From positions 19,753,351 to 19,817,350 of the forward strand of contig NC_065544.1 of the NCBI RefSeq assembly GCF_932294415.1: a stretch of 64,000 nucleotides of DNA. The letters are read 5' to 3'. Below the pieces are notes generated by a model. The model saw only the letters and a list, made by a program, of their open reading frames with translations, had not been told where the DNA came from and ran no database searches. Positions 16,922-64,000 of this stretch are shown piece by piece (position 1 is the first letter of the stretch; every line of letters begins with the position of its first letter). Source of the DNA: Quercus robur (lineage: Eukaryota; Streptophyta; Magnoliopsida; Fagales; Fagaceae). The position numbers and the translations under genes are program-made.

Positions 16922-17788
16922 GTAACCCACCCCGATTCTAAAAATTGACATCAACAGTGACATGATTAGTAGAGAAAATTAATTGCAGAAACTAGCTACA
17001 TTTCACATGTTCTTAACTTTTAATATAGCCATTGAGAGTCACATCGCAACAAATAAATCATGTTTTATTCTGTTTTCTTTACCAATCAAAAGCACAAACA
17101 TATCCTCTCCATATGCACTATACAAAAGCCTACATTATATACACGTGTGAGATGTATACTCTTTCTTTAGCATATGAAGGCATGTGCAGACATGCAACGG
17201 CAATACTCTTTTCTTTAGCATTTGAAGGCACAAATATATCCTTTCCATGTGCACTATACAAAAACCTTAAATTAAACAAACACATACATATACATAAACA
17301 TATAAACTTAAAAAAAAAAAAAATCAAAATATATAATATAAAATAAACAAGCAAACAAAATTACTACATCACTGAAGTGACTAAAAAGAAACAAGTTACT
17401 CATGCTTATGTAAAATCCAAGAAATTGTTATATACTAAGCATAGGCTAATATCAAAAGGAAAGCAAAACCATTTGAAATGCAGCACAGCACAAGGGGGGT
17501 TGGATTGGCTATTTTCATGGGCATTTGAATGCCTCGTAAATAAACGATATTAACCTTATTGTGGAGGGACCAAGTGATGTAACGGGTGGTGCTTATTAAA
17601 TCCTCCATACATCTGCAGCAAAACATTTTGAACAATGAGAGAAGATATCAGGGGCAAACACAACAGATGATTTTTAATAAGCATCATGCACACGCAATAT
17701 CCTAAAACATCTTATGAACACCTGAGCATATGGGAAACGTGGAAAAGACAGAACCTAGGATATTCTTTGATAAAAAAAAAACTTTCAT
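16922..17788 (-). pseudogene. Duplicated fragment of ARC5/DRP5B (exon 14 plus flanks)
   Basis: 867 bp nearly identical to 32962-33831 in the ARC5 gene and in the same orientation. It contains, on the minus strand, the start of exon 15 (to about 16936), all of intron 14, exon 14 (17555-17612, CMEDLISTTRYITWSLHNK) and part of intron 13. Both splice sites of the exon copy are intact (CAG before it, GTTAAT after it). The match ends abruptly at ACTTTCA; sequence beyond is unrelated to ARC5 intron 13. Just upstream (16790-16921) is a repeat containing GTCCCACATCGCC, so a mobile element may mark that breakpoint. No other ARC5 exons were found nearby, so it is a stray gene fragment. Confidence 0.9.
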
Positions 17789-19288: not shown

Positions 19289-19882
19289 CTGTGCAGCCAG
19301 GTAATTTAGTAACTACCATCCAAAATTTACAACTATAACTAGTTTCCAAAATTAGAACTGCTTTCCTCAAATTTATATTTCGAAAATAAATTAAAAGACT
19401 TAAGATTTAAGTTGCTGCTGTAGGAGTTGCTCACACACCGGCTTAGAGGGTCGGGCCATCCCAAATTCGTTTAGCAATGACTCATTGCAACTATTAAGCA
19501 ACATTATTGCAACACCTTGAATAAAACAATAATATACCTAATGCAACATAGTTTCCTCGGACGAGAACTTTCTTTACTGCAGCGAGCTTCGAATCGCCAG
19601 AGTTGTTTAACATGAGTATTTTGTTGACGGAGGAAACTATGCCCCTTTAGGTATTTTGCAATAATGTTGCTTAACAGGTACAATGAGTCATTGCTAAACG
19701 AATTTGGGATGGCCCGACCCTCTAAGGTGGTGTGTGAGCAACTACTACAGCAGCAACTTAAATCTTGAGTGTTTTAATTTATTTTCAAAATACAAACTTG
19801 GGAAAACAGTTCTAATTTTGGAAACTAGTTATAGTTGTAAATTTTGGATGGTAGCTACTAAATTACCTGGCTGCAGTACAGA
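19289..19882. mobile_element. Long foldback element, arms about 250 bp
   Basis: The left arm (about 19289-19566) begins TGCAGCCAGGTAATTTAGTA; the right arm (about 19630-19882) is its reverse complement with roughly 90-95% identity. Shared landmarks in both arms are AACTATAACTAGTTTCC, GTTGCTGCTGTAG, GAGGGTCGGGCCATCCC and GCAATGACTCATTG. The spacer is about 60 bp and contains TTCGAATCGCCAGAG. Transcription across it would give a long hairpin RNA. No target duplication is evident. Confidence 0.85.
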
Positions 19883-43800: not shown

Positions 43801-44073
43801 CTTGGTGCCGCCGCCGACATGGTTGAACTGGAAACCCATGAGGGCTTCCACCAGTGCGCTCTTCCCGTCCGTCTGATGACCCACCACCAACACCGCGGGG
43901 GCCTCGAATGGGGTCTCGAACTCTTGAGCTAGACTGTGTAGCTCGTTGTAAGCCTCGTACAGCCTCCATTGCTTCTCCACTTCCAGTTCCAATTCCGAGT
44001 CGTCCTCCATTGTAGCAGAAGAAGTAATGCCTAAGGAGTCTGACCCATCCTCTTCACTTCCCTCCATTCTCAT
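31877..44073 (-). CDS. ARC5: ARC5/DRP5B dynamin-related plastid-division GTPase, 17 exons
   Basis: A cytosolic dynamin-like GTPase recruited to the outer chloroplast envelope, where it drives the last step of plastid (and peroxisome) division. Exons, 5' to 3': 44073-43681, 43040-42876, 42785-42663, 41785-41564, 39878-39745, 39630-39538, 38346-38283, 37815-37767, 37598-37516, 36575-36418, 36168-36108, 34981-34919, 34785-34685, 33656-33599, 32978-32631, 32234-32070, 31969-31877. All introns are GT-AG and phases agree, giving 790 residues without a stop (Arabidopsis ARC5 is about 777). The GTPase has P-loop GHQTDGKS (65-72), switch-I GGGTKTRRP (87-95), DTPG (169-172) and TKLD (240-243). The C-terminal half ends with an LPALLREDLESAF helix and a basic I-K-R-L-K-E-K tail. 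The start was taken at the first ATG (MRMEG); a second ATG lies two codons on. Residue wording follows ARC5, not the DRP5A paralogue. Introns carry transposon insertions. Confidence 0.95.
36246..36368. mobile_element. Small solo LTR (TRIM-like), 123 bp, in ARC5 intron 10
   Basis: Begins TGTTAGGA and ends ATAACA, flanked by perfect 5-bp duplications TAAAA (36241-36245, 36369-36373). It contains AACCGGCTTGCAAGG, GAGGGTGCCCAAG and CCATGTGGGAC, motifs of very short plant LTR elements. It sits between exons 10 and 11 of ARC5 and does not touch the splice sites. Confidence 0.7.
36600..37500. other. Repeat-rich part of ARC5 intron 9
   Basis: Intron 9 (36576-37515) holds a short direct repeat GTCAATCTAAACTATACAA (near 36800) and, at 37145-37310, the common plant repeat containing CCTTAATCCCAACTAATTGGG. 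A related copy of the latter is at 40010-40140 in intron 4. No exon-like sequence is present. Confidence 0.5.
38583..39503. mobile_element. Long-TIR foldback element (Mutator-like MITE) in ARC5 intron 6
   Basis: The left end GGTAAATTTCAGTAACTTAC continues into TTTCAAAATTGACCAACTTG and CCGTTAATTATTC. The right end is the inverted copy, with the same order on the other strand beginning AGGGTAAATTTTAG. The arms are about 130 bp. Both sides are A runs, so an A-rich 9-bp target duplication is possible but cannot be proved. The middle contains a CT microsatellite (38721-38788) and internal repeats. The right end lies about 33 bp inside the intron from the exon 6 donor. Confidence 0.75.
41327..41342 (-). 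mobile_element. Tiny pyrimidine insert with target duplication, ARC5 intron 4
   Basis: 16 bp TCTTTTCTTTTTAGAT between AAAGACCAACAGAAT (41312-41326) and AAAGACCAAACAGAAT (41343-41358). On the minus strand this is an A-rich tail, like the other tail-only insertions in the window. Confidence 0.6.
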
Positions 44074-44762
44074 TTTATCACTGATGCGGAGTCCAGACTC
44101 AAAAGTGTGTTTACTCAAGTTTTTACTGTTTCGAGTTTACTCGTGGAAGCAACGTACCATATCCATCGATATCCACTTTTTCTTTCGGCCCGCCCGATAT
44201 ATCCACTTTTTTATCTTTTCTATTTTTAAATTTTAGGCAAAATCCATGGGAAAATGGCTATTTGATTTCATCCGTTTATTTTTGGAAACTCCATTAATGT
44301 GTGTCCGTTTGACATGATTAATTTTGTCAATTTATTTTATTATTTAACTTATTTTTGTTATTATTTATGAGTCATATTGCACTTTTTAATACTATTCATG
44401 GTTTCTACTGTATTATTTTAGTTAACTTTTACCTTTATTTACAGTAATTTTAACAAAAAATTTTCAATTTCAGCAAAATAAGTAGACCCCAAATAGACCT
44501 TGCATATTTTGCCACTTAAAATTCTGCATAGTTTTGCTAGATAATTTGAAAAAATGGTTGTTTGGCTAAATAGTTTAAAAATAAAGGGCATAGTCATTTT
44601 AAAAATACACATAGAACTCTAAAAATACATGTAAAAACACACATAGAACTCGACATCAATAATCTTGAGTTCCAAAACAGGGGTATTTTGCTAGATACTT
44701 AAAAAAGAGAGATGTTTTACAACATACTTCAAAATAAATGGTATTTATCCATTTTTCCCTAA
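44074..44762. other. ARC5 upstream region with a decayed MITE
   Basis: Should hold the ARC5 promoter and 5' UTR; no unambiguous TATA box can be assigned. 44303-44498 resembles the MITE family of 20896 (GTCCGTTTGAC at the left; CAGCAAAATAAGTAGACCCC and CAAATAGACC at the right) but is very diverged. Confidence 0.4.

Positions 44763-46225: not shown

Positions 46226-46269
<44 letters not shown>
46198..46269. repeat. TA/TG microsatellite at the pararetrovirus boundary
   Basis: TATATA-rich sequence with (TA)n at 46227-46248 runs into (TG)n to 46269. The next bases (GTATTCCTGATGG) are already pararetroviral coat-protein coding sequence. Endogenous florendoviruses are known to be frequent neighbours of TA simple repeats. 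Confidence 0.9.
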
Positions 46270-46270
<1 letters not shown>

Positions 46271-49041
46271 GTATTCCTGATGGTGTTAATACCTTGATCA
46301 ATACCATTCTCAAACACTTTGTTGGTACTCCATCCAATATTTCATCTCATGATTATTTAAATGATTTGAGTTGTCCAACTGTGTCTGAATACAGATGGTA
46401 TCAAGATGTTTTTATTTCCAGAGTGATGCTCCGGAAAGATTGTCTTAAGTTTTATTAGAAAGAAAAGTTTATTGACGGTTTGCCTCCTATCTTTGCTCAT
46501 AAGGTAAAACAAGAATTAGTAAGTAAAAATGATTCTAGTGATTATAATAATTTAACCTATGAAGATATTTTCAATACTATTAAAAAACTTAGTACCAATA
46601 GGTGTAATGATAAAAAATTGTTAAAACACCAATTAAGGTACAGATATAACTTTGTTAAACCTAATTATTTCTATGCTAAGAAGAGACGTGTTAACTGTGG
46701 AAAATCTGGATACTTTAATAAAAATTGTAAAAGAAAACCTAGTAATTTAAAAGACAAATTCAACATACTAAATATTGGTAATTCTTCTAATATTATTGGG
46801 AGTAGAGGTTCTTGTTGCAAGGTTATTAAAACCAATGTTCTCATCAAGAGTAAAGAGGATAAAATTTTGGAAAAATTTAATAAAAAGAAATCTAAAAAAC
46901 TAACTGTTAATGATTTACAACATGAAATTAATATTGTTAAACAAGAGATAAGCGAATTAAAACATGATTTTAAAGATGTTAAAAGTAATCTTAAACAAGA
47001 ACTTGAGCATAATGATGGAGATGAATCCTATCAACAAGCTCTTCTTTCTGGTAAAGGTATTCCTGATGATGTTACTATTTCTCAACTTGCTCTTGTTAAT
47101 AAAATATTTCCTCCAAAATGGTTTACAAAAGTCAAAATTGTTGTTTCTCTTGATTATCATTTCACTGTTATTGCTATGATAGATTCAGGTGCGGACATGA
47201 ACTGTATCCAAGAAGGACTGATTCCTTCAAAATACTTTGAAAAATCTACTGAAAGATTGGTTTCTGCTAATGGTTCTCAAATGAAAATAAAGTATGAATT
47301 GAATAATGCTTATGTATGCCATGCTAATATTTGTTTCAAGATTTCTTCTGTTCTTGTTAAAAATATGACTGATAAAGTGATTCTTGGTTTGCCTTTTATA
47401 AATGCTTTATATCCTTTCCTTGTTGAACATGATGGAATTACTACTGATCCTTTTGGACAAAAAGTAAAGTTCAAATTTGCTTCGAAGTTTGATATTGATA
47501 CTAATACTGCTTCAAACATGATTCATGCTAAAATTAAACATCTTCAATTTCTTCAGCAAGAAGTTAGATACAAGAAAATTGCTGAACAAATTTCTGATAA
47601 ATTGTTGCAATCCAAAATTGATAATTTTCAGAAAATGTTGATTGATGATGTTTGCTCCGATGTTCCTAATGCTTTCTGGCATAGAAAGAAACATATTGTT
47701 GATTTGCCATATGTCAAAGATTTTGATGAGAAAAATATTCCTACTAAAGCTCGTCCTATCCAAATGAATGTTGAAACTGTTGAATTTTGCAAAAAAGAAA
47801 TCCATGATTTGTTGCAGAAAAAATTGATTAGGAATAGCAAGTCTCCCTGGTCTTGTTCAGCCTTTTATGTCCAAAAAAATGCTGAAATTGAGAGAGGAAC
47901 CCCAAGATTAGTCATTAACTACAAACCCTTGAATAAGGTTTTAGAATGGATTCGGTATCCCATTCCCAACAAGAATGACCTTGTCCATAGGTTGAATGAA
48001 GCTGTTGTGTTCTCCAAGTTTGATATGAAATCTGGGTTTTGGCAAATTCAGATTAATGAGAATGATAGGTACAAAACTGCTTTCACCACTCCTTTTGGAC
48101 ATTATGAGTGGAATATTATGCCATTTGGTCTTAAAAATGCCCCAAGTGAGTTTCAAAATATCATGAATGATATTTTTAACTCCTTCAGTCATTTCACCAT
48201 TGTTTATATTGATGATGTTCTTGTTTACTCTAGCTCTATTGACTAACACTGGAAACACTTGAATTCGTTTCTAGATACTATCAAAAGAAATGGTCTTGTT
48301 GTCTCAGCCAAGAAGGTTAAACTATTCCAAACCAAAGTTCGTTTTCTTGGCTACGATATCTCTGAAGGACAGATTCGTCCTATAGATAGAGCCATCCAGT
48401 TTGCCGATAAGTTTCCTGATGTTATCATTGACAAGACACAGCTCCAAAGATTTCTTGGGTCATTAAACTATGTTGCAGATTTTTACAAAGATATGAGGAA
48501 ACAATGCAAACCTCTGTTTGATCGATTAAAAAGTAATCCTCCCCCTTGGTCTGATGTTCATACTTCTATTGTTAAACAAATCAAAACTCATGTTAAGACA
48601 TTGCCTTGTCTTGGTATTCCTACTATTGGTGCTTTCAAAATTGTTGAGACCGATGCCTCTGATGTTGGTTATGGTGGTATTCTAAAACAAAAAGTTTCTC
48701 CTGAGTCATCTGAACAAATTGTTCGTTTCTATTCAGGCATTTGGAACAATGCACAGTTAAATTATAGTACTATTAAAAAGGAGATTTTATCTATAGTACT
48801 ATGTATTTCAAAATTTCAAAGTGATTTGTTAAACCAAAAATTTTTGTTACGAATTGATTGCAAAAGTGCTAAATATGTTATTGAAAAAGATGTTGAAAAT
48901 ATTGCTTCAAAACATATTTTTGCTAGATGGCAAGCTATTTTAAGCGTTTTTGATTTTGATATTGAATATATTAAAGGATCTCAAAATTCTATCCCTGATT
49001 TCCTTACCCGTGAATTTCTGCAGTGTCACAATGGCAAGTAG
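46270..49041 (+). pseudogene. Pararetroviral polyprotein (ORF1), truncated, A1
   Basis: Caulimoviridae-type polyprotein lacking the movement protein and the N-terminal part of the coat protein. Seen in order: coat protein region; a degenerate zinc knuckle near 46690 (NCGKSGYFNKNC, with the first Cys and the His of CCHC lost); aspartic protease MIDSGAD at 47176; RT with GFWQIQ and the YIDD catalytic box near 48210; RNase H with ETDASDVGYGG near 48650; stop TAG 49039-49041. In-frame stops interrupt it: TAG 46456-46458 and TAA 48244-48246. The TAA lies just after the YIDD box and is shared with A2. No functional enzyme can be made in one piece. Confidence 0.92.
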
Positions 49042-50275
49042 AAGACCAAAAGATAATCCTCCTGTTGAAACCCCTAAACAAATTGTTAAAAAAGAACCTG
49101 CTTCTCCCCTTGACATAACCAACCGTTTCACCACCCTAGGAACCATTCCTAGGATTAATTACTCCACTGTTCTTGCTTCATCTTATGATCCTTATGCCTT
49201 AACCCCTGTTAACCGGCCCATTAAAACTGTTTTTCCAAAAAGTTCCCCTCAATACATCAAAAAACAATATTACCAACACCTGTTTTATGTTGAACCCAAC
49301 AAAGCCTTTATTTCTGATTCTCTCAGACTTGCTAAGAGTTATTTCTCTCCAAAGTTTCATTGGATTCCGGAGCATAGGGAAAAGAATTTAAATTATTATT
49401 CTGATCTTCTGCGCCATGAAAGATCTATTATTATTAACACCATTTCTGATCAAAAGGACACTCCCAAAATTATTTACCACAATGTTTACTTGGTCAATTT
49501 CATTTCTGAAGAACAATGGGGCTCTTCTCTTACATCTACCAGAACAATGCCAAGTTCCCCCATTCCCTATTCATATTATGATTATATCATGGCTTGGACA
49601 AGATTCATGCTGCACCAGAATGAAAACATGTCTCATTCCTGGTTTGTTAACTTTGACAAAGAATTCACTGGTGATTTGCCCCTTTGGTTCAACCGCTGGT
49701 GGGCCCAATTTGGTCCTGTTACTGAATTATTTCCTGCACCATTGCTTGATGCTTTCAACTGTTTCAAGAGATGTTATAGGTGTGATCCTTATGGAGCCAA
49801 ATTTCCTGCTTTGCTTCATTTTGTTAAGAAATATAAAATACCTTGGATATTGAAATGGCAATATGAGAAAGATGGTGATGTTCTCTCTAGACATTGGTAT
49901 GTAAAATGGTGGGGAAAATTCCCTCACACTCAAAAGATCATTACTGCTGTTGCCTCTATTTCCAGAGAATCTTCATCTACTGCTGCTTTGCCCATGGCAA
50001 AAAATCATTCCTTTGTTCAAACCCCTGCTCCTGCTGATGCTCCCTCTTCTTCTTCCGGCAAAAATGTTCAGAATAAAAGCTCCTCTATTGACAATTTGAG
50101 AAAGAATCCTGATGCTCTTCGAGCTTTACTCAAATGGGCAGAAGAAGCTGTTGCTGATCAAGAAGAATCCAAAGCCTCCTCAGAAGAATCTGTTGCTCAC
50201 AATCCCTATTTCCCATATGACCAAGAGCTGTTTGGACATGATGAAGATAACACTCCAGATCTTCAAGAAGATTGA
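49031..50275 (+). CDS. Pararetroviral ORF2, unknown function, 414 codons (A1)
   Basis: Starts at ATG 49031, overlapping the ORF1 stop by 11 bases (ATGGCAAGTAG), and runs open to TGA 50273-50275. The N-terminus is basic and Pro-rich (MASRRPKDNPPVETP). The middle is aromatic-rich (FHWIPEHREKN, SYYDYIMAWTRF, PLWFNRWWAQFGPV, HWYVKWWGKFPH). The C-terminus is Ser-rich and then acidic. No known enzyme motif was recognised. Florendoviruses are known to carry a second ORF of unknown role at this place, which this resembles. The A2 copy of the same ORF has a nonsense codon. Whether A1 ORF2 is transcribed is unknown; its upstream promoter would be missing in this truncated copy. Confidence 0.8.
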   Translation: MASRRPKDNPPVETPKQIVKKEPASPLDITNRFTTLGTIPRINYSTVLASSYDPYALTPVNRPIKTVFPKSSPQYIKKQYYQHLFYVEPNKAFISDSLRLAKSYFSPKFHWIPEHREKNLNYYSDLLRHERSIIINTISDQKDTPKIIYHNVYLVNFISEEQWGSSLTSTRTMPSSPIPYSYYDYIMAWTRFMLHQNENMSHSWFVNFDKEFTGDLPLWFNRWWAQFGPVTELFPAPLLDAFNCFKRCYRCDPYGAKFPALLHFVKKYKIPWILKWQYEKDGDVLSRHWYVKWWGKFPHTQKIITAVASISRESSSTAALPMAKNHSFVQTPAPADAPSSSSGKNVQNKSSSIDNLRKNPDALRALLKWAEEAVADQEESKASSEESVAHNPYFPYDQELFGHDEDNTPDLQED

Positions 50276-51100
50276 GCTTATTTGTCTAGCCTGCATAAAG
50301 GCCAAATGCTACACTGTTTACTAGTGGACTTTCACTGTTAATTTCCAATCCTGATGATAATGTTCTGAAAAGTTGATTCCCTGTGTTTCCCGCGACTTTT
50401 AGTCACACCAAGATTGCTTTCAGTAATTTATCTTTTACTGTTAACTTTTACTGTTCATAAGTACTGTTTACTCAAAACTTTGCCTATTTAAGGGGGGTTG
50501 TCCCTTGGGCTTCTCAAGCAAAGTTGGAAGCAAAGTTTTAGTTCTGATTTCTCTTCCCTTAGAACTAGCCTTCTTAGAGAGAGAACCCACTTGCTTCCAC
50601 TACTACTACAACCTTGTTCACCTTTGTTCACTACAAGCCTTGTAATCCTACAAACCTTGTAACTAGGACTAGTTCAAGCTTTGTAACTGATAACCTGTAA
50701 CTGTTGAGATCTTGTATTCACTACTATTACTGTAAGTGTTTATCCTACTTTCAATAAGAAGTATTTTCAGTTCTATATTCATTACTTTACTTGTTGCTAC
50801 CACCACCTTGGACGGATTACTGCCATACCGGATGGTTCTAAATTGCTTTCATTTACTTTGAACTATTGTTCTTATTTACTTTGAATTATTTTGATATATA
50901 CTGTTTGGCTGGTTCTACCGCCTTATTACTGTGCTTACATTCAAGCGATCTACTTTCAAGTTATTTACTTTCAAGTTCTTTACATTATTTCCATTTACAA
51001 TATTTCCATTTACATATCAAGTTCTTTGTCTCTTTTCCATTTACAATATTACTGTGCTTCCGTCTCCTTCTCTTCAGTAGTGCGTCCCCTTCCCCCTTTA
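50276..51100 (+). promoter_or_regulatory. Pararetroviral intergenic region: promoter, leader, poly(A) signal (A1)
   Basis: After ORF2 come ACTGTTTACT/ACTGTTAACT-type repeats (50310-50470), a TATA box TATTTAAG (50485-50492), and a leader of about 600 bases to the PBS. A likely poly(A) signal AATAAG (50753-50758) lies about 260 bases downstream of the TATA box, which fits the terminally redundant RNA of caulimovirids. A2 and B hold almost the same region on the minus strand (51554-52150, 58808-59400). Confidence 0.7.
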
Positions 51101-51114
51101 TGGTATCAGAGCCA
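51101..51114 (+). promoter_or_regulatory. tRNA-Met primer-binding site (A1)
   Basis: TGGTATCAGAGCCA, complementary to the 3' end of plant initiator tRNA-Met, the minus-strand DNA primer of Caulimoviridae. It is 283 bases or less from the ORF1 ATG, as in A2. Confidence 0.92.
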
Positions 51115-51445
51115 CTCTTTTCTGGCCAGTGGTAGTGTGGTTGTGTTCTTTGTCTCTTGTCCGTGTCTACCCGAACGCTTGATATTCCGTTGTTGTGTTC
51201 CCTTCTTACCGTCGTTGGCGCCACCCTAGTCGTAAAGTGAAGTCCTAGAACCTAGCTGTAAGGCCCGTTTGAGCCAAGAGAGGGCGTGTAGGGCATGAGA
51301 GATATAAGGTTGGTTAGGGTATGTGTTACGAAATGCAATGGTTGTGAGAAAAACATGATAACTGAGTGTTGAATCTAGGATAGTATGGATAAGTTGTGGA
51401 GATCCAACTCCTCTATCAGCTCCAGGATTAGTTGTCCTCCTGATA

Positions 51446-51539: not shown

Positions 51540-51553
51540 TGGCTCTGATACCA
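51540..51553 (-). promoter_or_regulatory. tRNA-Met primer-binding site (downstream end of A2)
   Basis: TGGCTCTGATACCA on the plus strand, the reverse complement of TGGTATCAGAGCCA. Confidence 0.9.
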
Positions 51554-52343
51554 TAAAGGGGAAGGGGACGCACTGCTGAAGAGAAGGAGACGGAGGCACA
51601 ATAATATTGTAAATGGAAATAATGTAAAGAACTTGAAAGTAAATAGCTTGAAAGTAAATAACTTGAATGTAAGAACAATAATAAGGCGGTAGAACCAGCC
51701 AAGCAGTATATATCAAAATAATTCAAAGTAAATAAGAACAATAGTTCAAAATAAATGAAAGCAATTTAGAACCATCCGGTATGGCGGTAATCCGTCCAAG
51801 GTGGTGGTAGCAACAAGTAAAGTAATGAACATAGAACTGAAAATACTTCTTATTGAAAGTAAGATAAACACTTACAGTAATAGTAGTGAATACAAGATCT
51901 CAACAGTTACAGGTTAACAGTTACAAAGCTTGAACTAGTCCTAGTTACAAGATTTGTAGGATTACAAGGCTTGTAGTGAACAAGGATGAACAAGGTAGTA
52001 AACAAGGTAGTAGTAGTAGTAGAAGCAAGTGGGTTCTCTCTCTAAGAAGGCTAGTTCTAAGGGAAGAGAAATCAGAACTAAAACTTTGCTTCTAACTTTA
52101 CTTGAGAAGCCCAAGGGACAACCCCCCTTAAATAGGCAAAGTTTTGAGTGAACAGTACTTGTGAACAGTAAAAGTTAACAGTAAAAGATAAATTACTGAA
52201 AGCAATCTTGGTGTGAGTAAAAGTCGCGGGAAACACAAGGAATCAACTTTTCAGAACATTATCATCAGGATTGGAAATTAACAGTGAAAGTCCACTAGTA
52301 AACAGTGTAGCATTTGGCCTTTATGCAGGCTAGACAAATAAGC
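51554..52343 (-). promoter_or_regulatory. Intergenic promoter/leader region (A2)
   Basis: Minus-strand equivalent of 50276-51100. The TATA box TATTTAAG lies at 52134-52127. A conserved CTTATTTGTCTAGCCTGCA (about 52342-52324) directly overlaps or follows the ORF2 stop. From 52150 to 51554 it is nearly identical to 59400-58808 of unit B. Confidence 0.7.
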
Positions 52344-53588
52344 TCAATCTTCTTGAAGATCTGGAGTGTTATCTTCATTATGTCCAAACAGCTCTTGGTC
52401 ATATGGGAAATAGGGATTGTGAGCAACAGATTCTTCTGAGGAGGTTTTGGATTCTTCTTGATCAGCAACAGCTTCTTCTGCCCATTTGAGTAAAGCTCGA
52501 AGAGCATCAGGATTCTTTCTCAAATTGTCAATAGAGGAGTTTTTATTCTGAACATTTTTGCCGGAAGAAGAAGAGGGAGCATCAGCAGGAGCAGGGGTTT
52601 GAACAAAGGAATGATTTTTTGCCATGGGCAAAGCAGCAGCAGATGAAGATTCTCTAGAAATAGAGGCAACAACAGTAATGATCTTTTGAGTGTGAGGGAA
52701 TTTTCCCCACCATTTTACATACCAATGTCTAGAGAGAACATCACCATCTTTCTCATATTGCCATTTACATATCCAAGGTATTTTATATTTCTTAACAAAA
52801 TGAAGCAAAGCAGGAAATTTGGCTCCATAAGGATCACACCTATAACATCTCTTGAAAAAGTTGAAAGCATCAAGCAATGGTGCAGGAAATAATTCAGTAA
52901 CAGGACCAAATTGGGCCCACCAGCGATTGAACCAAAGGGGCAAATCACTAGTGAATTCTTTGTCAAAGTTAACAAACCAGGAATGAGACATGTTTTCATT
53001 CTGGTGCAGCATGAATCTTGTCCAAGCCATGATATAATCATAATATGAATAGGGAATGGGGGAACTTGGCATTGTTCTGGTAGATGTAAGAGAAGAGCCC
53101 CATTATTCTTCAGAAATGAAATTGACCAAGTAAACACTGTGGTAAATAATTTTGGGAGTGTCCTTTTGATTAGAAATGGTGTTAATAATAATAGATCTTT
53201 CATGGCGCAGAAGATCAGAATAATAATTTAAATTCTTTTCCCTATGCTCCGGAATCCAATGAAACTTTGGAGGGAAATAACTCTTAGCAAGTCTGAGAGG
53301 ATCAGAAATAGAGGCTCTGTTGGGTTCAACATAAAACAGGTGTTGGTAATATTGTTTTTTGATGTATTGAGGGGAACTTTTTGGAAAAACAGTTTTAATG
53401 GGCCGGTTAACAGGGGTTAAGGCATAAGGATCATAAGATGAAGCAAGAACAGTGGAGTAATTAATCCTAGGAATGGTTCCTAGGGTGGTGAAACGGTTGG
53501 TTATGTCAAGGGGAGAAGCAGGTTCTTTTTTAACAATTTGTTTAGGGGTTTCAACAGGAGGATTATCTTTTGGTCTTCTACTTGCCAT
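52344..53588 (-). pseudogene. Pararetroviral ORF2 with one nonsense codon (A2)
   Basis: Second copy of the 414-codon ORF2, from ATG 53588 to TGA 52346-52344. A TAA at 53105-53103 interrupts it about 40% of the way along, where A1 keeps a sense codon. Apart from this, differences from A1 are a few substitutions. The start again overlaps the ORF1 stop. Confidence 0.88.
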
Positions 53589-56500
53589 TGTGACACTGCA
53601 GAAATTCACGGGTAAGGAAATCAGGGATAGAATTTTGAGATCCTTTAATATATTCAATATCAAAATCAAAAACGCTTAAAATAGCTTGCCATCTAGCAAA
53701 AATATGTTTTGAAGCAATATTTTCAACATCTTTTTCAATAACATATTTAGCACTTTTGCAATCAATTCGTAACAAAAATTTTTGGTTTAACAAATCACTT
53801 TGAAATTTTGAAATACATAGTACTATAGATAAAATCTCCTTTTTAATAGTACTATAATTTAACTGTGCATTGTTCCAAATGCCTGAATAGAAACGAACAA
53901 TTTGTTCAGATGACTCAGGAGAAACTTTTTGTTTTAGAATACCACCATAACCAACATCAGAGGCATCGGTCTCAACAATTTTGAAAGCACCAATAGTAGG
54001 AATACCAAGACAAGGCAATGTCTTAACATGAGTTTTGATTTGTTTAACAATAGAAGTATGAACATCAGACCAAGGGGGAGGATTACTTTTTAATCGATCA
54101 AATAGAGGTTTGCATTGTTTCCTCATATCTTTGTAAAAATCTGCAACATAGTTTAATGACCCAAGAAATCTTTGGAGCTGTGTCTTGTCAATGATAACAT
54201 CAGGAAACTTATCGGCAAACTGGATGGCTCTATCTATAGGACGAATCTGTCCTTCAGAGATATCGTAGCCAAGAAAACAAACTTTGGTTTGGAATAGTTT
54301 AACCTTCTTGGCTGAGACAACAAGACCATTTCTTTTGATAGTATCTAGAAACGAATTCAAGTGTTTCCAGTGTTAGTCAATAGAGCTAGAGTAAACAAGA
54401 ACATCATCAATATAAACAATGGTGAAATGACTGAAGGAGTTAAAAATATCATTCATGATATTTTGAAACTCACTTGGGGCATTTTTAAGACCAAATGGCA
54501 TAACATTCCACTCATAATGTCCAAAAGGAGTGGTGAAAGCAGTTTTGTACCTATCATTCTCATTAATCTGAATTTGCCAAAACCCAGATTTCATATCAAA
54601 CTTGGAGAACACAACAGCTTCATTCAGCCTATGGACAAGGTCATTCTTGTTGGGAATGGGATACCGAATCCATTCTAAAACCTTATTCAAGGGTTTGTAG
54701 TTAATGACTAATCTTGGGGTTCCTCTCTCAATCTCAGCATTTTTTTGGACATAAAAGGCTGAACAAGACCAGGGAGACTTGCTATTCCTAATCAATTTTT
54801 TCTGCAACAAATCATGGATTTCTTTTTTGCAAAATTCAACAGTTTCAACATTCATTTGGATAGGACGAGCTTTAGTAGGAATATTTTTCTCATCAAAATC
54901 TTTGACATATGGCAAATCAACAATATGTTTCTTTCTATGCCAGAAAGCATTAGGAACATCGGAGCAAACATCATCAATCAACATTTTCTGAAAATTATCA
55001 ATTTTGGATTGCAACAATTTATCAGAAATTTGTTCAGCAATTTTCTTGTATCTAACTTCTTGCTGAAGAAATTGAAGATGTTTAATTTTAGCATGAATCA
55101 TGTTTGAAGCAGTATTAGTATCAATATCAAACTTCGAAGCAAATTTGAACTTTACTTTTTGTCCAAAAGGATCAGTAGTAATTCCATCATGTTCAACAAG
55201 GAAAGGATATAAAGCATTTATAAAAGGCAAACCAAGAATCACTTTATCAGTCATATTTTTAACAAGAACAGAAGGAATCTTGAAACAAATATTAGCATGG
55301 CATACATGAGCATTATTCAATTCATACTTTATTTTCATCTGAGAACCATTAGCAGAAACCAATTTTTCAGTAGATTTTTCAAAGTATTTTGAAGTAATCA
55401 GTCCTTCTTGGATACAGTTCATGTCTGCCCCTGAATCTATCATAGCAATAACAGTGAAATGATAATCAAGAGAAACAACAATTTTGACTTTTGTAAGCCA
55501 TTTTGGAGGAATTATTTTATTAACAAGAGCAAGTTGAGAAATAGTAACATCATCAGGAATACCTTTACCAGAAAGAAGAGCTTGTTGACAGGATTCATCT
55601 CCATCATTATGCTCAAGTTCTTGTTTAAGATTACTTTTAACATCTTTAAAATCATGTTTTAATTCGCTTATCTCTTGTTTAACAATATTAATTTCATGTT
55701 GTAAATCATTAACAGTTAGTTCTTTAGATTTCTTTTTATTAAATGTTTCCAAAATTTTATCCTCTTTACTCTTGGTGAGAACATTGGTTTTAATAACATT
55801 GCAGCAAGAACCTCTACTCCCAATAATATCAGAAGAATTACCAATATTTAGTATGTTGAATTTGTCTTTTAAATTACTAGGTTTTCTTTTACAATTTTTA
55901 TTAAAGTATCCAGATTTTCCACAGTTAACACGCCTCTTCTTAGCATAGAAATAATTAGGTTTAACAAAGTTATATCTGTACCTTAATTGGTGTTTTAACA
56001 ATTTTTTATCATTACACCTATTGGTACTAAGTTTTTTAATAGTATTGAAAATATCTTCATAGGTTAAATTATTATAATCACTAGAATCATTTTTACTTAC
56101 TAATTCTTGTTTTACCTTATGAGCAAAGATAGGAGGCAAACCGTCAATAAACTTTTCTTTCCAATAAAACTTAAGACAATCTTTCCGGAGCATCACTCTG
56201 GAAATAAAAACATCTTGATACCATCTGTATTCAGACATAGTTGGACAACTCAAATCATTTAAATAATCATGAGATGAAATATTGGATGGAGTACCAACAA
56301 AGTGTTTGAGAATAGTATAGATCAAGGTATTGACACCATTACAAACAATATTTTCATCAAAAATAGGCAAACATTCATCATTCTTTTTAACAGCATGTTT
56401 AATAGACTCTCTAGATTCTTCAGTGATATATGAATCCCACCATCCACGAAGAGCACCAGAAAAACCAGTAACAAGTAAGTTAATAATATCAGGTTGATCA

Positions 56501-58524
56501 AGATTATGGTTTTTTTGATAAGCAATACTAACCATAGACATGTGAATCATTTTAGTAACGATTTCCAGTTCAGACAAACCATCAATATTCCATTCATAAA
56601 GTTCATCAGTAGGAACAGAAGAAACAGAAGACACAGTATCAGAATCTGTATTTTCTTCAGAAACAATTTCTTTTTTGGAAATAATTCGAGCAATCGGGGT
56701 ACTTGTAGAGGTACCCTCAGTTTTAACTTTTAAATCAGAAAGCATTTTTTCAACAATTTCAAGAGTCTTGGACTGAGAAGTTTTAAACATAACTTTTTCT
56801 CTTTGACTGGGTAAATCAATCAAAGGTTTCTCAATTTTAATAGGATCAGATTTTTCAGGAACAGAAACAGTTTTTTCAACAAATTTTTCTTTAATACGGT
56901 CAAGCTGTTGACCAATGATATGCAAAGATTGATTAGTAAAATTGTTTTGTTCAATAAGGCTAACAATAGGAGTTTGATCATCAGCAATTTTGAAAGGAGA
57001 GGCCTTCACTTCCTCTTTTGTCACTTCATCTTTCTTAGTAGTTATCAGAATTGAATCAAGAGGAGGATGACTAGACCTAATAATGGTTTTATCAATCTTA
57101 ACAAAATTTGATTTCTTTATCACATTTAAATGTTGTTTTGAAACCTCATTATTTGGAACATAATGGTTTTCAAGAAAATCAAAAAACAAAATATGTTTTT
57201 TCAATTGATTCATCATTTCCAACCATTTTCTTTTAACACGGTCTTTATTAGACTGAGCAAAATTATTTTGGAAATATTTTCTCTTGGTTTTGTTTGTTGC
57301 AAGCATAAACTCATTGTACAAAGAATCCCAATCAATTTCAAAATCATCATTTAAAACAGTCAAAACTCTTAATTGATTTTGGTAAACAGGAGGATTTTCA
57401 ATAGGAGAATCAAAATCAGATGGAGTAACAGAAACAATGTCTTCCTCATCTTCATTAGCAGTTTTACTAAATGGAGTGGAAGTTTCAGGTTTAGTTGAAT
57501 AGTAAACAGAGCTAAATTGGGATTTATCACTTGAAATACCTTTTAGCTTCAAATCAGAGGATTTTTCCAAATTCTTTTTCAAAAATCCATTGATCTCGCG
57601 ATCTCTTTTTGAAATACTTTCAGATCTAGCAAAGGAATGTCTTCCTTCGTTGATCCTCAAAGGTGGATTGTTTTGAAAACTTATTTTAACAGTACCATCA
57701 AGATATTGTTGAATATGGGTGAGATTAAGCTCATCAAAAATGGGTTCAGCAGGAGGGGTTTCTTGTTCTAACAACCAATCATTAGGAATTTTAACATCTT
57801 GCCATTGAATCATTTTTGGAACTTGAATTTTAGCATCAGAAGTTGAACATTGAATTAACATGGTTTTACTCGAAGGTTCTCTAGGAATCATAGCACAAGG
57901 ATTCATTTGAGTACCCATTATTCTATAATAAATGCGGTAGATCAAAGCAAAAGGCTTACTACCCTCTTCCATATGATAACCAGATGAAGCAATATTCAAT
58001 GTCAAAGCTTTAACAATATTAGGATCATCCAAAGCAAGAGTAAGATCAGGATAACAGTTAAAATAAACAGGACCATCATACATAGAAGCAGTGATCATAC
58101 CAAGAATGTTATCTTTAAAAATCTTAAATCTAGCATCTCTTAAACACATGAGAATAGAAGCATTAATACCCTTTCGGGTAAGCGGTTTAATAGCAACTTG
58201 AACCATACTAATATGCAAATAATAGAATTTTTTAGCAGCAAGGAAGTCATTAATATTCTTTTTAGTGAACAAACAGCATTTTTTCATGAATTCTCGAAAT
58301 AGAGAAAATTTGTTCAACAGTTCTAGCTTTGTAAGCAGAATGAAAAGCACTTTCAACAAAACTAGTTTATAAATAGTTTTAGTATCAACTTTAGGAATAG
58401 TCCATTTACGAAAATCAGGGATCACCTCATTATCATCAATAGTGTGATCTTCTTCATTTACAATATCAGGAGGACAACTAATCCTGGAGTTGATAGAGGA
58501 GTTGGATCTCCACAACTTATCCAT
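53578..58524 (-). pseudogene. Pararetroviral polyprotein ORF1 (MP-CP-PR-RT-RH), A2
   Basis: 1649 codons from ATG 58524 (MDKLWRSNSS) to TAG 53580-53578, interrupted once by TAA 54375-54373 just after the RT active site. Domains by residue: 30K-type movement protein about 100-240 (MVQVAIKPLTRKG, ILMCLRDARFK, YDGPVYFNCYPDL); Ser/Lys-rich linker; coat protein core about 660-840; degenerate zinc knuckle about 863-875 (only two Cys, Tyr for His); aspartic protease D-S-G-A-D about 1030; RT with F-D-M-K-S-G-F-W and Y-I-D-D about 1370; RNase H D-A-S-D-V-G-Y-G-G after the stop. The order is that of petuviruses and florendoviruses, where one polyprotein holds all functions. The shared stop and knuckle defects with A1 argue that both descend from one already defective sequence. 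Confidence 0.93.
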
Positions 58525-58793
58525 ACTATCCTAGATTCAACACTCAGTTATCATGTTTTTCTTACAACCGTTGCATTTCGTAACACATACCTAACCAACC
58601 TTATACCTCTCATGCCCTACACGCCCTTTCTTGGCTCAAACGGGCCTTACAGCTAGGTTCTAGAACTTCACTTTACGACTAGGGTGGCGCCAACGACGGT
58701 AAGAAGGGAACATAACAACGGAATATCAAGCGTTCGGGTAGACACGGACAAGAGACAAAGAACACAACCACACTACCACCGGCCAGAAAAGAG
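58525..58793 (-). other. Leader between PBS and ORF1 (A2)
   Basis: About 270 bases, minus strand. The same sequence occurs in A1 at 51115-51383. It contains a GGCGCCACCCTAGTCG stretch. No separate ORF is supported. Confidence 0.6.
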
Positions 58794-58807
58794 TGGCTCT
58801 GATACCA
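58794..58807 (-). promoter_or_regulatory. tRNA-Met primer-binding site at the B/A2 junction
   Basis: Plus strand TGGCTCTGATACCA. Unit B's intergenic region ends here and unit A2's leader begins, with no extra bases between. Confidence 0.92.
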
Positions 58808-59894
58808 TAAAGGGGAAGGGGACGCACTGCTGAAGAGAAGGAGACAGAAGCACAGTAATATTGTAAATGGAAATAATGTAAAGAACTTGAAAGTAAATAG
58901 CTTGAAAGTAAATAACTTGAATTTAAGAACAATAATAAGGCGGTAGAACCAGCCAAGCAGTATATATCAAAATAATTCAAAGTAAATAAGAACAATAGTT
59001 CAAAATAAATGAAAGCAATTTAGAACCATCCGGTATGGCGGTAATCCGTCCAAGGTGGTGGTAGCAACAAGTAAAGTAATGAACATAGAACTGAAAATAC
59101 TTCTTATTGAAAGTAAGATAAACACTTACAGTAATAGTAGTGAATACAAGATCTCAACAGTTACAGGTTAACAGTTACAAAGCTTGAACTAGTCCTAGTT
59201 ACAAGATTTGTAGGATTATAAGGCTTGTAGTGAACAAGGATGAACAAGGTAGTAAACAAGGTAGTAGTAGTAGTAGAAGCAAGTGGGTTCTCTCTCTAAG
59301 AAGGCTAGTTCTAAGGGAAGAGAAATCAGAACTAAAACTTTGCTTCTAACTTTTCTTGAGAAAAAACCCCCAAAACATAAGGGACAACCCCCCTTAAATA
59401 GGCAAAATTCGGAGTGAACAGTGTCATGAATAGTAACGGATGAACAGTAACAGTGAATAGTGACAGATGAATAGTGACAGGTGAATAGTAAAATGGAAAT
59501 TTTCTTCTCTTTTTGACCCAATCTTGTGAGGAATCCACAAGATTATGGGAATCCTCCTTAGACATCAGCAATAGGCCTATACGTGTAGGAACAAGGCCTC
59601 ATTATTGGTGTCCTTAAGAGACAAAAAGAAGCCAATAAGAAAGAAGTCACTAATAGGCATGCACTTTGTTGTCTTCACGTGAACATCATTCTTTGGGATC
59701 CTTTAGAAGCATCATAATGGTGAAAAACCAGCTTCTAGTAGTAGTAAATATTGGAGCATTGGCCATTGTGCAGGCTAGACAAATAAGAGAATCAAAATCC
59801 TCCGCAAAATACGGAGTATCAGTTCTGAATATTTTGGCTGTTGTGCAAGCCAGGCAAATAAAGTAACACCAGTCTTGTAGCAGTAGTGACCTCA
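58808..59894 (-). promoter_or_regulatory. Intergenic region of unit B
   Basis: 58808-59400 is nearly identical to A2 51554-52150, including the TATA box TATTTAAG (59400-59393). Upstream of the TATA box it differs: 59413-59493 holds tandem GAATAGT(G/A)AC / GAACAGT repeats, and 59760-59870 carries two copies of a GTGCA(G/A)GC(T/C)AG(A/G)CAAATAA motif also found at the ORF2 end of A2. The shared part suggests both units used the same promoter and leader. Confidence 0.75.
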
Positions 59895-62800
59895 TCAATC
59901 AGTAGAGGGAGCATCGGAGGGATAACCATCAAAAGTATCAAAAGGACCTTGTGGAGAATCACATACATGCTCATGGTAAATAGCATACTTGTTACAGAAT
60001 CCACAATATAAAATTGGCTCAAACTTTGGAGTTTTTCCTGGGATAAGAAGACTGTGCTTCCTATGAAATGATAATTTTTCCATAGATCATGAGCAACTTC
60101 ACGAATTTGATTATTAAAATAATTTCTCCAGCATTTTGCAAGACCAAAAGGATCTTTAAAAGACAATTGAGAATTTCCCTTGAACCATGGCCCTTGGTGA
60201 GTATAACCATTAATGAGAATGAGATGCTTTGAGGGGTTAACATTCATCCAGTTATTTTTCTCCCATTTTGGTAGAGTGCTCCAGCATCTAATAGTAACAA
60301 AAGGTCTAGTGGAAGAGTTTTCAAACCCTTTAATAGCATTCTGAATGATCTGTGGAAGTTGGCTAGCCTGTTTATGACTTGTCAACTTTACAAACCTAAC
60401 AAAGCCATATTCAAACATTTGGGAAAGCCAGCTAGAATTAGGATCATCATCATCACTATCATTTGAATCTTCATCAGTGAAATATGAACCATCATCAAAA
60501 TTAATAAGGAGACCAGGAAATGGATGTTTCTTTTCATATACTCTGAGACTGCTCCCAAAGTGATCTTCCCATTCAAGCTGAATAAAGACATTATCACCTT
60601 CGTCTATTTCATTAGGGTCAGGAATAGTAGCAGTAACAAGTTTTCTGAAATACTTGGACCATAGGTCAAAAGACCTAGACATAGCCTTGCTATCCAGAAT
60701 ACGAGATTGTAAATCTGAAGGCAAGTTGGCAACAGCACTTCTTAACATGGATTGGGTCTTAAGACTCAATCTAGCATAATCAGTGCCCATTATAGTCTTT
60801 TTATCCATCGAATGGATTTCCTCTTTGCCAAAGAGTTGACTAATGTAGGCTTTAAGATGGCTCACAAGAGCCTCATTTTTTGAAACAAGGTTATTTTCTA
60901 GAACAAAGTCAATATTTGAAGCAAGGTCATTATCTGGAATAAGGTTACCATAATGGCTCATATAAATCTCGTTTTGAGCAGTAAGGTTAACAAGGTGGAT
61001 TTCAAGGGCTCTAAGGGTTTTGTGAAAAACATTACTGTGGTTTTTGGTAAAAGCAAACTGAAGGTTATCAAGAATGAATTTAATAGAATCTGGTAATTCT
61101 GAATAGGTACCATTGTGGAATTGTAGATTTTTTGACAAAACTTCCTGTAAAGCAATTAATATATCACCATTGGAGTATGTCACCTCCGCCGGGACATCTC
61201 CTTGAAGGGATGTTGATCCACTGGGTTTTACACCAAAAGATGCGCCTTCATGCATTTTAAAAGGTCGTCCCACTGGGAACCCTTTGCTTTGGGAATAGTC
61301 CTGTGCAGGAGCTTTTCCCTTGTTTTTCTTTTCCATAATAATCCACTTACTAGTGGTATAAATATGAATATTATTATTGTGCCACTTATTAGTGGTATTT
61401 ATCCACGCATCATTATCCGATTCCTGCAAAGAATCATTAATATTGTTAGGATAATGGATAGTTTTTAACATTTTGGTGTTATGAAAATTACCTTTAAAAT
61501 CATCAGAATTCATTATTAGTTCTTGAACAAGTTCATTCATGGGAGAGTCTTTCTTATAAGACAGATTATCAATATCAATTTCAAACTTTGAAGCAAATTT
61601 TAATTTTACTTTCTGTCCAAATGGATCAGTAGTAATTCCATCATGTTCAACAAGAAAGGGATACAAAGCGTTAATAAATGGCAGACCAAGAATCACTTTA
61701 TCAGTCATATTTTTGACAAGAACAGAAGGAATCTTGAAACAAACATTATCATGGCACACCTGAGCATTATTCAATTCATACTTAATTTTCATTTGAGAAC
61801 CATTAGCAGAAACCAATCTTTCAGTAGATTTTTCAAAATATTTTGAGGGAATTAATCCTTCTTGGATGCAGTCCATATCTGCACCAGAATCAATCATAGC
61901 AATAACAGTGAAATGATAATCAGGAGAAACAACAATTTTAACTTTTGTAAACCATTTTGGAGGAAATAATTTATTAACAAAAGCAAGTTGGGGATTAGTG
62001 AAAGTATCAGGAGTACCTTTATTAGAAAGAAGAGTCTGTTGACCAGAATCATTTCCATCACTATGCTCATTTTGTTCGTTACTGGATTTATTAAGATCTT
62101 TATCAAGTTTTAGCATTGTCAATTCTTGTTTGAGATTATGGTTATCACTTTTCATGCTTTTAAATTCATGTTTTAATTCATTTATCTCTTGTTTAACAAT
62201 ATGAATTTCATTTTGGAGATCATTAACAGTTAGTTCTTTAGATTTCTTTTTATTAAATCTTTCCAAAGTTTCTTCAAAACTTATGGTTGATTTTGGTTTT
62301 TTACCAATTTCATCTCTTATCAAGTTTTTCTTAAACCTATCCAAATATTCTTTCTGGAGTTCAGGGTTTTGAATTTGATTTATTAGCTGAATTATCAATT
62401 TTTCATCTTCTTCACTCTTGGTGAGAGCATTAATAACATTGCAACAGGAATCTCTATAACCAATTCTAATATTAGGAGAATCAGAAGAATCATCAGCAGA
62501 TTGATAGCAAGAATCAGATGAAGAAGAAAAATCATCTTCCAAAGAATCAGACGGGGTGTTTGATTCAAGGATTCTGAATAATTCTTCTTGCACATTATCA
62601 TCAATGTTTAACATGTTGAACTTGTTTTTTAACTTACCAGGTTTTTCTTTACAGTCTTTACTAAAGTGTCCAGGTTTATTACAGTTAAAGCATTTACCTT
62701 TACTTGGTCTTTGTTTAACATGTTTTTTAGAAACATTTTTCTTCTTAGCATAAAAATCATTAGGTTTAATAAAGTTATTTCTGTATTTTTTATGGCTTTT

Positions 62801-64000
62801 ATTATGTTTTTTACTTTTTTGCCTAGAAGGAGTAATAGGAGGCAGACCATATTGTTCACAGAAATTTCCCATTTCATATTTAGCTTTTCTTTTATTCTTT
62901 AATTGGTGTTTTAACAATTTTTCATCATTGCACATATTAATACCAAGTTTTTTAATAGTACTGAAAATATCACCATAAGTTAAATTATCATAATCAATAG
63001 AATCATTTTTACCCATTAATTCTTGTTTTACCTTATGAGCAAAGATAGGAGGCAGACCGTCAATAAACTTTTCTTTCCAATAAGGCTTATGGCAATCTTT
63101 CCGGAGCATCACCCTGGAAGTAAAAACATCTTGATACCATCTGTAATCAGACATAGTTGGACAACTCAAATTATTCAGATAATCAGAAACACGGGATGAA
63201 ATATTGGATGGAGTACCAACAAAATGTTTGAGAATGGTATAGATCAAGGTATTAACACCATCAGGAATACCACGACCAATACTTTCATCAAAAATAGGCA
63301 AACCTTCCTCATTCTTTTTAATAGCATGTTTAATAGACTCTTTGGATTCTTCAGTGATGTATGAATCCCACCATCCATGAAGAGTACCAGAAAAACCAGT
63401 AAGAAGCAAGTTAACAATTTCCGGTTGATCAAGATCATGGTTGTTTTGATAAGCAATACCAACCATAGACATGTGACTCATTTTATTAATGATTTCCTGT
63501 TTAGACAAACCATCAATATTCCATTCATAGAGCTTATCAGCAGAGACAGAAAACTGTGTTTGAAAAGATCTCTCTTCAAACTGCATATCAGGAGGAGTAG
63601 GTTTTGGATACCAATTTTTTGTAAAAGACATGGGTTTGGAGTTCCCAACAAATCTTTTAATTTCTGGGAAATCATCATCAAAGATTCTTTCTGCAGGAAC
63701 AGAAGAAACAGTATCAGAATCTGTATTTTCTTCAGAAACAATTTCTTTTTTGGAAATAGTTCGAGCAGTTGGAGTACTTGTAGAAGTACTAGTACCCTCA
63801 GTTTTAATCTTTAGATTAGAAAGCATTTTGTCAACAATTTCAAGAGTCTTGGACTGAGAAGTTTTAAACATAACTTTTTCTCTTTGACTGGGTAAATCAA
63901 TCAAAGGTTTCTCAGTTTTAATAGGAACAGATTTTTCAGAAACAGAAACAGTTTTTTCAACAAATTTTTCTTCAATACGGTCAAGCTATTGACCAATAAT
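59819..64000 (-). pseudogene. Unit B polyprotein: coat-protease fused to a novel C-terminal region, no RT
   Basis: Runs off the window at 64000; a TAG (63988-63986) interrupts its first visible codons, then it is open to 59819. From 63985 to about 61580 it matches A2 closely: coat protein, an intact zinc knuckle CFNCNKPGHFSKDC (about 62680), a Ser/Asp-rich linker, a coiled-coil-like stretch (KKKSKELTVNDLQNEIHIVK) and the protease D-S-G-A-D (about 61888). At about 61575, just after KFASKF, homology ends. The remaining 560 residues have no YIDD, no RNase H and no known domain. An internal Met (MEKKNKGKAPAQ, 61336) could start a separate product. Near 60060 the frame seems to slip: the frame ending at 59895 has a Cys/His cluster of the form C-x2-C-x6-H-x-H-x-C and looks more protein-like than the frame ending at 59819. 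The movement protein, if present, lies outside the window. Confidence 0.85.

What the first reader, a model, noticed from the sequence alone, without database searches (positions are those of the whole stretch)
51540..64000. Two different pararetrovirus genome units (A and B) joined at one primer-binding site: a candidate two-component genome
A2 is a complete 7254-base unit with RT and RNase H. B, directly upstream on the same strand, has the same coat-protease region and a nearly identical 600-base promoter/leader, but no RT/RNase H. Shared ends with different coding content is what a bipartite virus would leave, and such an arrangement has been proposed for some endogenous florendoviruses. 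Seeing B and A fused exactly at the PBS suggests template switching between two co-packaged or co-replicating components.
Basis: partly seen in the sequence, partly recalled or inferred. Interest (0 to 1): 0.9.

Follow-up and report, generated by a model that had tools for sequence, protein, structure and literature searches.

The report
Fossil two-part plant virus
A plant genome carries many fossil copies of a virus that copied itself through RNA and seems to have split its genes over two DNA molecules, one keeping the copying enzyme and the other keeping a working coat protein.

Summary
The window holds a compound endogenous florendovirus insertion: an inverted, truncated unit (A1), a full-length unit (A2) and a second kind of unit (B). 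B is not a local chimera: its RT-less 3' part ("tail") has 40 scored matches, the window's own included, at 37 loci of the host genome and relatives in Lithocarpus and Castanea. B reads MP-CP-protease-tail; A reads MP-CP-protease-RT-RNase H plus ORF2. A2 is not complete: 15 of 19 informative A copies, A2 among them, share in-frame coat-protein losses at a broken zinc knuckle that 13 of 14 B rows keep. Polymorphisms shared among copies show coat protein relaxed in A (pN/pS 0.40-0.62), constrained in B (0.10-0.20), and RT constrained in A (0.04-0.11). A and B share start-site-to-PBS, leader and MP; promoter and CP differ by component. A lies within 15 kb at 10 of 37 B loci, 0.05-0.5 expected. 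A two-component virus is well supported, but the fusion is not "exactly at the PBS": the sequence type changes about 560 nt upstream. Bipartite florendoviruses were published in 2014; this is a new variant whose tail is not recognisably ORF2.

The parts
46226..46249 (.). (AT)12 microsatellite, followed by a TG run, at the outer edge of the compound insertion
   Evidence: a second (AT)11 run lies beside the other edge, outside the window (L028)
46268..51442 (+). A1: 5'-truncated A unit in inverted orientation (no MP), with PBS and leader at its 3' side
   Evidence: 97.3% to A2 over 46280-51114; leader continues after PBS 51101-51112
48950..50275 (+). ORF2 of A1, open, 441 aa
51443..51539 (-). 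97-base CP fragment joining A1 and A2
   Evidence: 97% to 55696-55792
51540..58793 (-). A2: full-length component A unit (7254 bases)
54373..58524 (-). A2 ORF1, 1383 codons: MP, DUF7588, DUF7746/CP, protease, RT to an in-frame stop
   Evidence: stop shared with A1, absent from 20 of 20 other A loci examined
55640..56919 (-). A2 CP region with in-frame losses (6, 144, 9, 6, 111, 45, about 120 in two pieces, 132 nt) and broken CCHC knuckle
53578..54360 (-). A2 RNase H frame
52344..53203 (-). A2 ORF2 region, interrupted by one stop
51542..51553 (-). PBS (word taken as the initiator tRNA-Met complement from recall), 3' end of A2
58796..58807 (-). PBS between B and A2
58794..59355 (-). shared block from predicted transcription start to PBS, 98.9% to A2's own copy
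59393..59400 (-). TATA-like box of the B promoter, 593 nt upstream of the PBS
59356..59821 (-). B-specific promoter/3' region (U3)
59819..63904 (-). B ORF as it stands, 1361 codons: CP with CCHC, protease, tail; frame shifted near its end by an 82-base deletion; 18 of 19 other B stretches keep that piece, the 19th (L025) breaks off before it
59822..61567 (-). B tail: no Pfam hit above cut-off and no PDB hit; several relatives end in a CxxC...HxHxxC pattern
61567..62271 (-). B protease region
62272..64000 (-). B CP region with intact CCHC knuckle

Best explanation
This is a compound insertion of both components of a bipartite endogenous florendovirus (Caulimoviridae) in a plant that is probably of the Fagaceae. 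Shown: component A carries MP, a shrunken CP, protease, RT, RNase H and ORF2; component B carries MP, an intact CP, protease and a tail. Both have the same start-site-to-PBS block, leader and MP; each has its own promoter. Inferred: both pregenomic RNAs were packaged with the B coat protein and reverse-transcribed by the A enzyme in co-infected cells. RT jumping between A and B RNAs, above all at the obligatory first strand transfer (strong-stop DNA from the PBS to the RNA 5' end) and again within leader/MP, kept the shared block alike while CP and the rest diverged. With B supplying CP, CP in A decayed in in-frame steps because protease, RT and RNase H downstream still had to be translated. 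Both molecules were then captured together at a TA microsatellite during break repair.
For: B tail: 40 scored matches of 334 candidates, each covering 1385-1401 of 1401 bp, at 37 loci, window included. Of the 20 B stretches fetched, only L016/L019 share host flank; the other pairs share viral pieces only, though five stretches (L010, L017, L023, L026, L028) have under 1.3 kb of flank to compare. A RT: 40 scored full-length matches of 369 candidates, A1 and A2 included. Complete B order seen in the chromosome; 2 of 19 B stretches have an open stretch of 1932-1970 aa, the length expected of one MP-CP-PR-tail polyprotein; Castanea gene models P0137 and P0155 read MP-CP-PR-start of tail. Of 233 proteins collected, 60 match the tail and none of them RT or RNase H; 38 match RT or RNase H and none of them the tail. 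CP losses shared by A copies are multiples of 3, come in steps, and are losses because Carya, Castanea and Lithocarpus sequences have the segments. pN/pS for variants in at least 3 copies: A CP 0.62, B CP 0.15, B tail 0.16, A RT 0.04; columns near gaps removed: A CP 0.57, B CP 0.16, A RT 0.04. Mean identity AA/AB/BB: start-PBS 94.5/94.7/94.8, U3 93.6/84.4/93.9; leader 98.1/97.8/97.5, MP 94.7/95.7/97.4. MP tree mixes A and B (100/99), CP tree holds all 14 B rows in one clade (100/100). Co-location 10 of 37 B loci. TA runs at both edges.
Against: No particle, transcript or protein was seen; all is from fossils. A CP versus B CP is significant in 4 of 5 versions of the test (p 0.007, 0.008, 0.023, 0.024) but not in the smallest (core domain, at least 3 copies: p 0.2). 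Variants shared by at least 3 copies in MP give 0.26 and in B protease 0.41 (few sites), so B is not strictly constrained throughout. Three A loci (L044-L046) have fuller CP and L044 an intact knuckle; Castanea A gene models also keep CCHC, so a one-part helper virus may have existed beside B. The window's own copies are broken in RT (A1, A2) and in the tail (B). The start site is predicted from a TATA box only.
Confidence: 0.75

Rival explanations
1. B (and perhaps the eroded A too) were non-autonomous parasites of an ordinary one-part florendovirus with intact CP and RT; they shared its ends but were not obligate partners.
For: L044-L046 A copies have fuller CP; Castanea has A gene models with CCHC beside B; MP is present in both components, so the split is redundant.
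Against: B keeps CP and tail under constraint, which a mere passenger need not; 15 of 19 informative A copies are eroded and CP is relaxed there; the loci with fuller CP are a separate MP lineage.
Confidence: 0.2
2. Copies of B multiplied by host segmental duplication or transposition of the locus, not as virus.
For: L016/L019 share map and about 3.7 kb of host flank; L009/L010 and L024/L026 are local inverted pairs.
Against: No other pair of the 20 stretches shares host flank; junction partners and truncations differ; shared variants under purifying selection.
Confidence: 0.03
3. B is a local chimera of viral ends and host or transposon DNA.
For: Tail has no Pfam or PDB match.
Against: Tail DNA at 37 loci, fused to CP/protease in the fetched ones, and in proteins of Lithocarpus and Castanea.
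Confidence: 0.01

Closest known systems
Bipartite florendoviruses of Vitis (VvinBV, VvinDV), Oryza (OsatBV) and Sorghum, Geering et al. 2014, PMC4241990 (passages seen)
   Same: Component B is one polyprotein MP-CP-AP plus C-terminal extension without RT; component A has reduced CP; intergenic region over 90% and MP over 87% alike; compound A/B loci; TA repeats at insertions.
   Different: Here the B extension is not recognisably ORF2 and no RNase H remnant was found; A keeps the full order with internal in-frame CP losses, whereas the Vitis A is described as truncated at the amino terminus; a contrast in selection on CP between A and B is added. The words Quercus and Castanea do not occur in that paper's main text.
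Ordinary florendoviruses with two ORFs (for example Lotus japonicus A virus; Carya and Castanea copies seen here)
   Same: MP-CP-AP-RT-RH in ORF1, then ORF2.
   Different: One molecule, intact CP; among the 57 tail relatives listed none is named as from Carya or Prunus.
Petunia vein clearing virus, genus Petuvirus (as described in PMC4241990 passages)
   Same: MP, CP, AP, RT and RH1 in one large polyprotein.
   Different: No ORF2; not divided.

Membership tests
Florendovirus | ORF1 order MP-CP-AP-RT-RH1 | tested here: met
   (A2, with a stop inside RT; RNase H follows in the same frame)
Florendovirus | second ORF with relatives only in florendoviruses | tested here: inconclusive
   441-aa ORF2 in A1, 63 relatives (Lithocarpus, Castanea, Carya, Prunus, unnamed contigs), no Pfam family above cut-off; homology to the published ORF2 not tested, those sequences are not held
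Florendovirus | place in RT tree | not tested
   no RT tree with reference viruses was built
Florendovirus | insertion at TA repeats | tested here: met
   this locus only
Bipartite florendovirus | component B: single polyprotein MP-CP-AP plus extension, no RT | tested here: met
Bipartite florendovirus | B extension homologous to ORF2 | tested here: inconclusive
   hhalign probability 0.1-3.3%, the better ones only at the N-termini; positive controls 100%
Bipartite florendovirus | C-terminal part of RH1 kept in B | tested here: not met
   0 of 60 tail proteins match A RNase H at 1e-5; no Pfam RNase H hit in the tail
Bipartite florendovirus | intergenic region over 90% and MP over 87% identical between A and B | tested here: met
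   start-PBS 94.7%, MP 95.7%; the promoter part is 84.4% where alignable
Bipartite florendovirus | component A lacks part or all of CP | tested here: met
   15 of 19 informative A copies share the 111- and 45-nt losses
Bipartite florendovirus | compound A/B insertions | tested here: met
Bipartite florendovirus | trans-complementation in infected cells | not testable with these tools
   fossil sequences only

The most novel reading that the evidence does not exclude
An obligate bipartite reverse-transcribing virus caught in the act of dividing its genome: one host genome holds A copies with intact, partly lost and wholly lost coat zinc knuckles, the shared losses always in frame, with coat selection moved to B, and with the start-site-to-PBS block kept alike by strong-stop DNA jumping between the two RNAs, while the B tail is a new protein with its own putative zinc motif.
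Probability: 0.5. Interest if true: 0.85.

Novelty: new variant of a known kind. Interest (0 to 1): 0.7.

Why it matters
Whether any reverse-transcribing virus really had a divided genome rests, in the papers seen, on complementary gene maps, sequence likeness and compound loci in fossils. Here another line of evidence is added: selection acts on the coat gene in one component and on RT in the other, and intermediate copies suggest the order of loss. It also gives a mechanism that predicts which stretch the two components should share, which can be tested in Vitis, Oryza and Sorghum with existing genomes.

Tried and rejected
B as local chimera: rejected. Tail as ORF2 relative: not shown. Tail in IMG/VR: no pattern match. 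Tail or ORF2 profiles in PDB sequences: none at E up to 1. Structure prediction: unavailable. RT stop as programmed readthrough: rejected, 20 of 20 other A loci examined are open there. Dating in years: not attempted, no rate tested. In one search I had counted an intergenic copy of unknown type (L017 upstream) and a short L015 copy as A and the 5' fragment of L028 as B; one search repeats the comparison without them and its numbers are the ones given. Papers: none held with florendovirus and Quercus, or endogenous pararetrovirus and Fagaceae, nor beetEPRV with bipartite; the searches on caulimovirid components, CaMV coat zinc finger and strong-stop gave listings only and nothing from them is used. 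PMC4241990, PMC10377300 and PMC9719215 were seen as passages, not read whole.
Full report
What is in the window. Two exact PBS matches on the minus strand at 51542 and 58796 bound a 7254-base unit, A2. Its first ORF carries movement protein, DUF7588, DUF7746 and coat domain, protease and RT up to an in-frame stop; RNase H follows in the same frame and ORF2 after it. An inverted, 5'-truncated sister copy, A1, lies at 46268-51442 on the plus strand, 97.3% identical over 46280-51114, with ORF2 open. Unit B starts at 58794 and runs past the window end. Its ORF has coat domains, an intact zinc knuckle, protease and about 580 further residues ("tail") without RT or RNase H.

The junction. The stretch from about 59,355 to the PBS is 98.9% identical to the stretch before A2's own downstream PBS and 99.1% to a 219-base piece at B's own upstream side; against A1 and copies at other loci it is 92.2-97.1%. 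Upstream of the TATA box the B promoter differs from that of A. Downstream the sequence runs into the leader just as in A1. So the change from B type lies near the predicted transcription start; the TATA box is 593 nt from the PBS. The change is not at the PBS. The stretch equals what minus-strand strong-stop DNA would span; that reading is inference.

B elsewhere. The host genome is 786 Mb in 42 contigs. The tail DNA has 40 scored matches out of 334 candidates, all covering at least 1385 of 1401 bases, the window's own at 100% and the others at 95-99%, at 37 loci when hits within 20 kb are merged. They show the B order leader-MP-CP-protease-tail-promoter-PBS. Unit length is about 7.16 kb by adding the mapped pieces, against 7.25 kb for A. 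The window copy has an 82-base deletion near the tail's end that shifts its frame; 18 of the 19 other stretches keep that piece and L025 breaks off before it. With viral pieces masked, only L016/L019 share host flank; five stretches have under 1.3 kb left to compare. A-specific sequence adjoins B in 5 of 17 loci (L009/L010, L017, L024/L026, L027, L028; the pairs L009/L010, L016/L019 and L024/L026 each counted once; a 29-base A-like piece in L015 not counted). In the two top-40 lists an A lies within 15 kb of B at 10 of 37 B loci; 0.05 expected from 36 A loci, 0.52 if 369 A loci exist.

B in other plants. The tail search gave 57 proteins, from Lithocarpus litseifolius or from ENA contigs without a name; candidates over about 1018 aa were outside its length range. 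The CP search listed 120 of 170 hits. Of the 233 proteins so collected 60 match the tail, none of them RT or RNase H, and none of 38 RT or RNase H matches has the tail. Gene models and contigs are fragmentary, so this is weaker than it looks. Two Castanea dentata models read MP-CP-protease-start of tail. In a quick protein CP tree these two sit among Castanea A rows. Lithocarpus models P0026 and P0052 run tail-MP-CP and ORF2-CP-tail, as expected of compound insertions there too.

Coat protein in A. A1, A2 and the A copy in L026 share losses of 6, 111, 45, about 117-120 and 132 nt against B; A2 and L026 also share losses of 144, 9 and 6 nt in a part that A1 lacks; all are multiples of 3. Carya, Castanea and Lithocarpus proteins have the lost segments. 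Of 18 further A loci fetched, L030 and L031 gave too little CP and were dropped. With A1, A2 and L026 there are 19 informative copies: 15 share the 111- and 45-nt losses, L035 has one larger in-frame loss there, and L044-L046 lack these losses. L032 and L033 do not show the 144-nt loss and L034 cannot tell; L033 and L034 keep the knuckle histidine. Of the A rows read, only L044 has a full CCHC knuckle; 13 of 14 B rows do, L017 being the exception. Changes that are not multiples of 3 occur in single copies or small groups. This is a graded series, read as stepwise loss.

Selection. Counting sites where the minority letter occurs in at least 3 copies: A CP 43 N, 17 S, pN/pS 0.62 (14 copies); B CP 10 N, 16 S, 0.15 (14); B tail 10 N including one stop change, 15 S, 0.16 (19); B protease 5 N, 3 S, 0.41 (18); A RT 4 N, 26 S, 0.04 (22); MP 46 N, 45 S, 0.26 over 20 A and B rows. 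Singletons, taken as mostly younger than insertion, give 0.35-0.68. Fisher tests: A CP against A RT 1e-7 (same loci 1e-4), against B CP 0.007. Leaving out columns near gaps and using thresholds of 2 and 3 copies, A CP 0.40-0.57, B CP 0.10-0.20, A RT 0.04-0.11; A CP against A RT p at most 2e-4 in all four versions; A CP against B CP p 0.008, 0.023, 0.024 and, for the core domain with 3 copies, 0.2. Copies within one clade are not independent, so the p values are guides.

Exchange. Mean identities within A, between A and B, within B: start site to PBS 94.5, 94.7, 94.8 and promoter 93.6, 84.4, 93.9 for the alignable part (4 A and 12 B copies); leader 98.1, 97.8, 97.5; MP 94.7, 95.7, 97.4; CP by window 88-96, 83-94, 96-99. 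The MP tree (13 A, 7 B rows; loci with too little MP left out) has a group with 100/99 support holding 7 A and 2 B rows, and A as one clade occurs in 0% of 200 bootstrap trees; A rows L057-L059, the loci with fuller CP, branch apart. The CP tree puts all 14 B rows in one clade at 100/100, with L035 and L044-L046 between B and the eroded A. So the MP end was exchanged and CP was not.

Mechanism. Shown: two unit types, complementary content, shared block, different selection, co-insertion, and (AT)n runs at both edges of this compound locus. Inferred: trans-packaging by B coat protein, trans-copying by A RT, and strand transfer between A and B RNAs. That the coat zinc finger binds the RNA leader in CaMV is recalled and was not checked.

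What is known. Geering et al. 2014 (PMC4241990, passages) described bipartite florendoviruses in Vitis, Oryza and Sorghum with the same general plan; a 2023 review adds Beta (PMC10377300, passages). CAULIFINDER reports lower sensitivity for B components (PMC9719215, passages). New here, as far as these searches show, are a probable Fagaceae host (inferred from nearest relatives and from twelve large contigs met; no name was given), a tail without recognisable ORF2 kinship, the graded in-frame CP loss and the selection contrast. No paper on florendoviruses with Quercus or endogenous pararetroviruses with Fagaceae was found in this library; other literature was not searchable.

Noticed in passing
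window 4787-7442: Tandem array of about seven 379-base units, 95-96% alike.
   Followed up: no
window 16922-17787 and 32963-33832: Direct repeats of about 870 bases, 97% alike, 16 kb apart; could be the long terminal repeats of a large retrotransposon.
   Followed up: no
window 19292-19875: Long self-inverted repeat, 80% complementary, MITE-like.
   Followed up: no
window 13232-15330: Minus-strand kinase and legume-lectin domain frames, probably a lectin receptor kinase gene or its remains.
   Followed up: no
window 43636-44118: Frame with the start of a dynamin domain.
   Followed up: no
window 46268-51114 against 51540-56339: A1 and A2 are unevenly alike: about 99-100% over RT and RNase H, 96-98% towards the intergenic end; gene conversion or mosaic origin not tested.
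   Followed up: no
L016 and L019: Two B loci about 466 kb apart with the same map and shared host flank, a segmental duplication.
   Followed up: partly
P0010, P0009, P0020, P0016, P0038, P0046: Relatives of the B tail end in a YCxxC...HxH pattern, mostly followed by a Cys, a putative zinc site.
   Followed up: partly
P0042, P0050, P0052, P0053 (Lithocarpus), P0169 (Quercus rubra): A second, deeply diverged coat lineage; its four Lithocarpus members listed here also match the B tail, so a second two-component virus is likely.
   Followed up: partly
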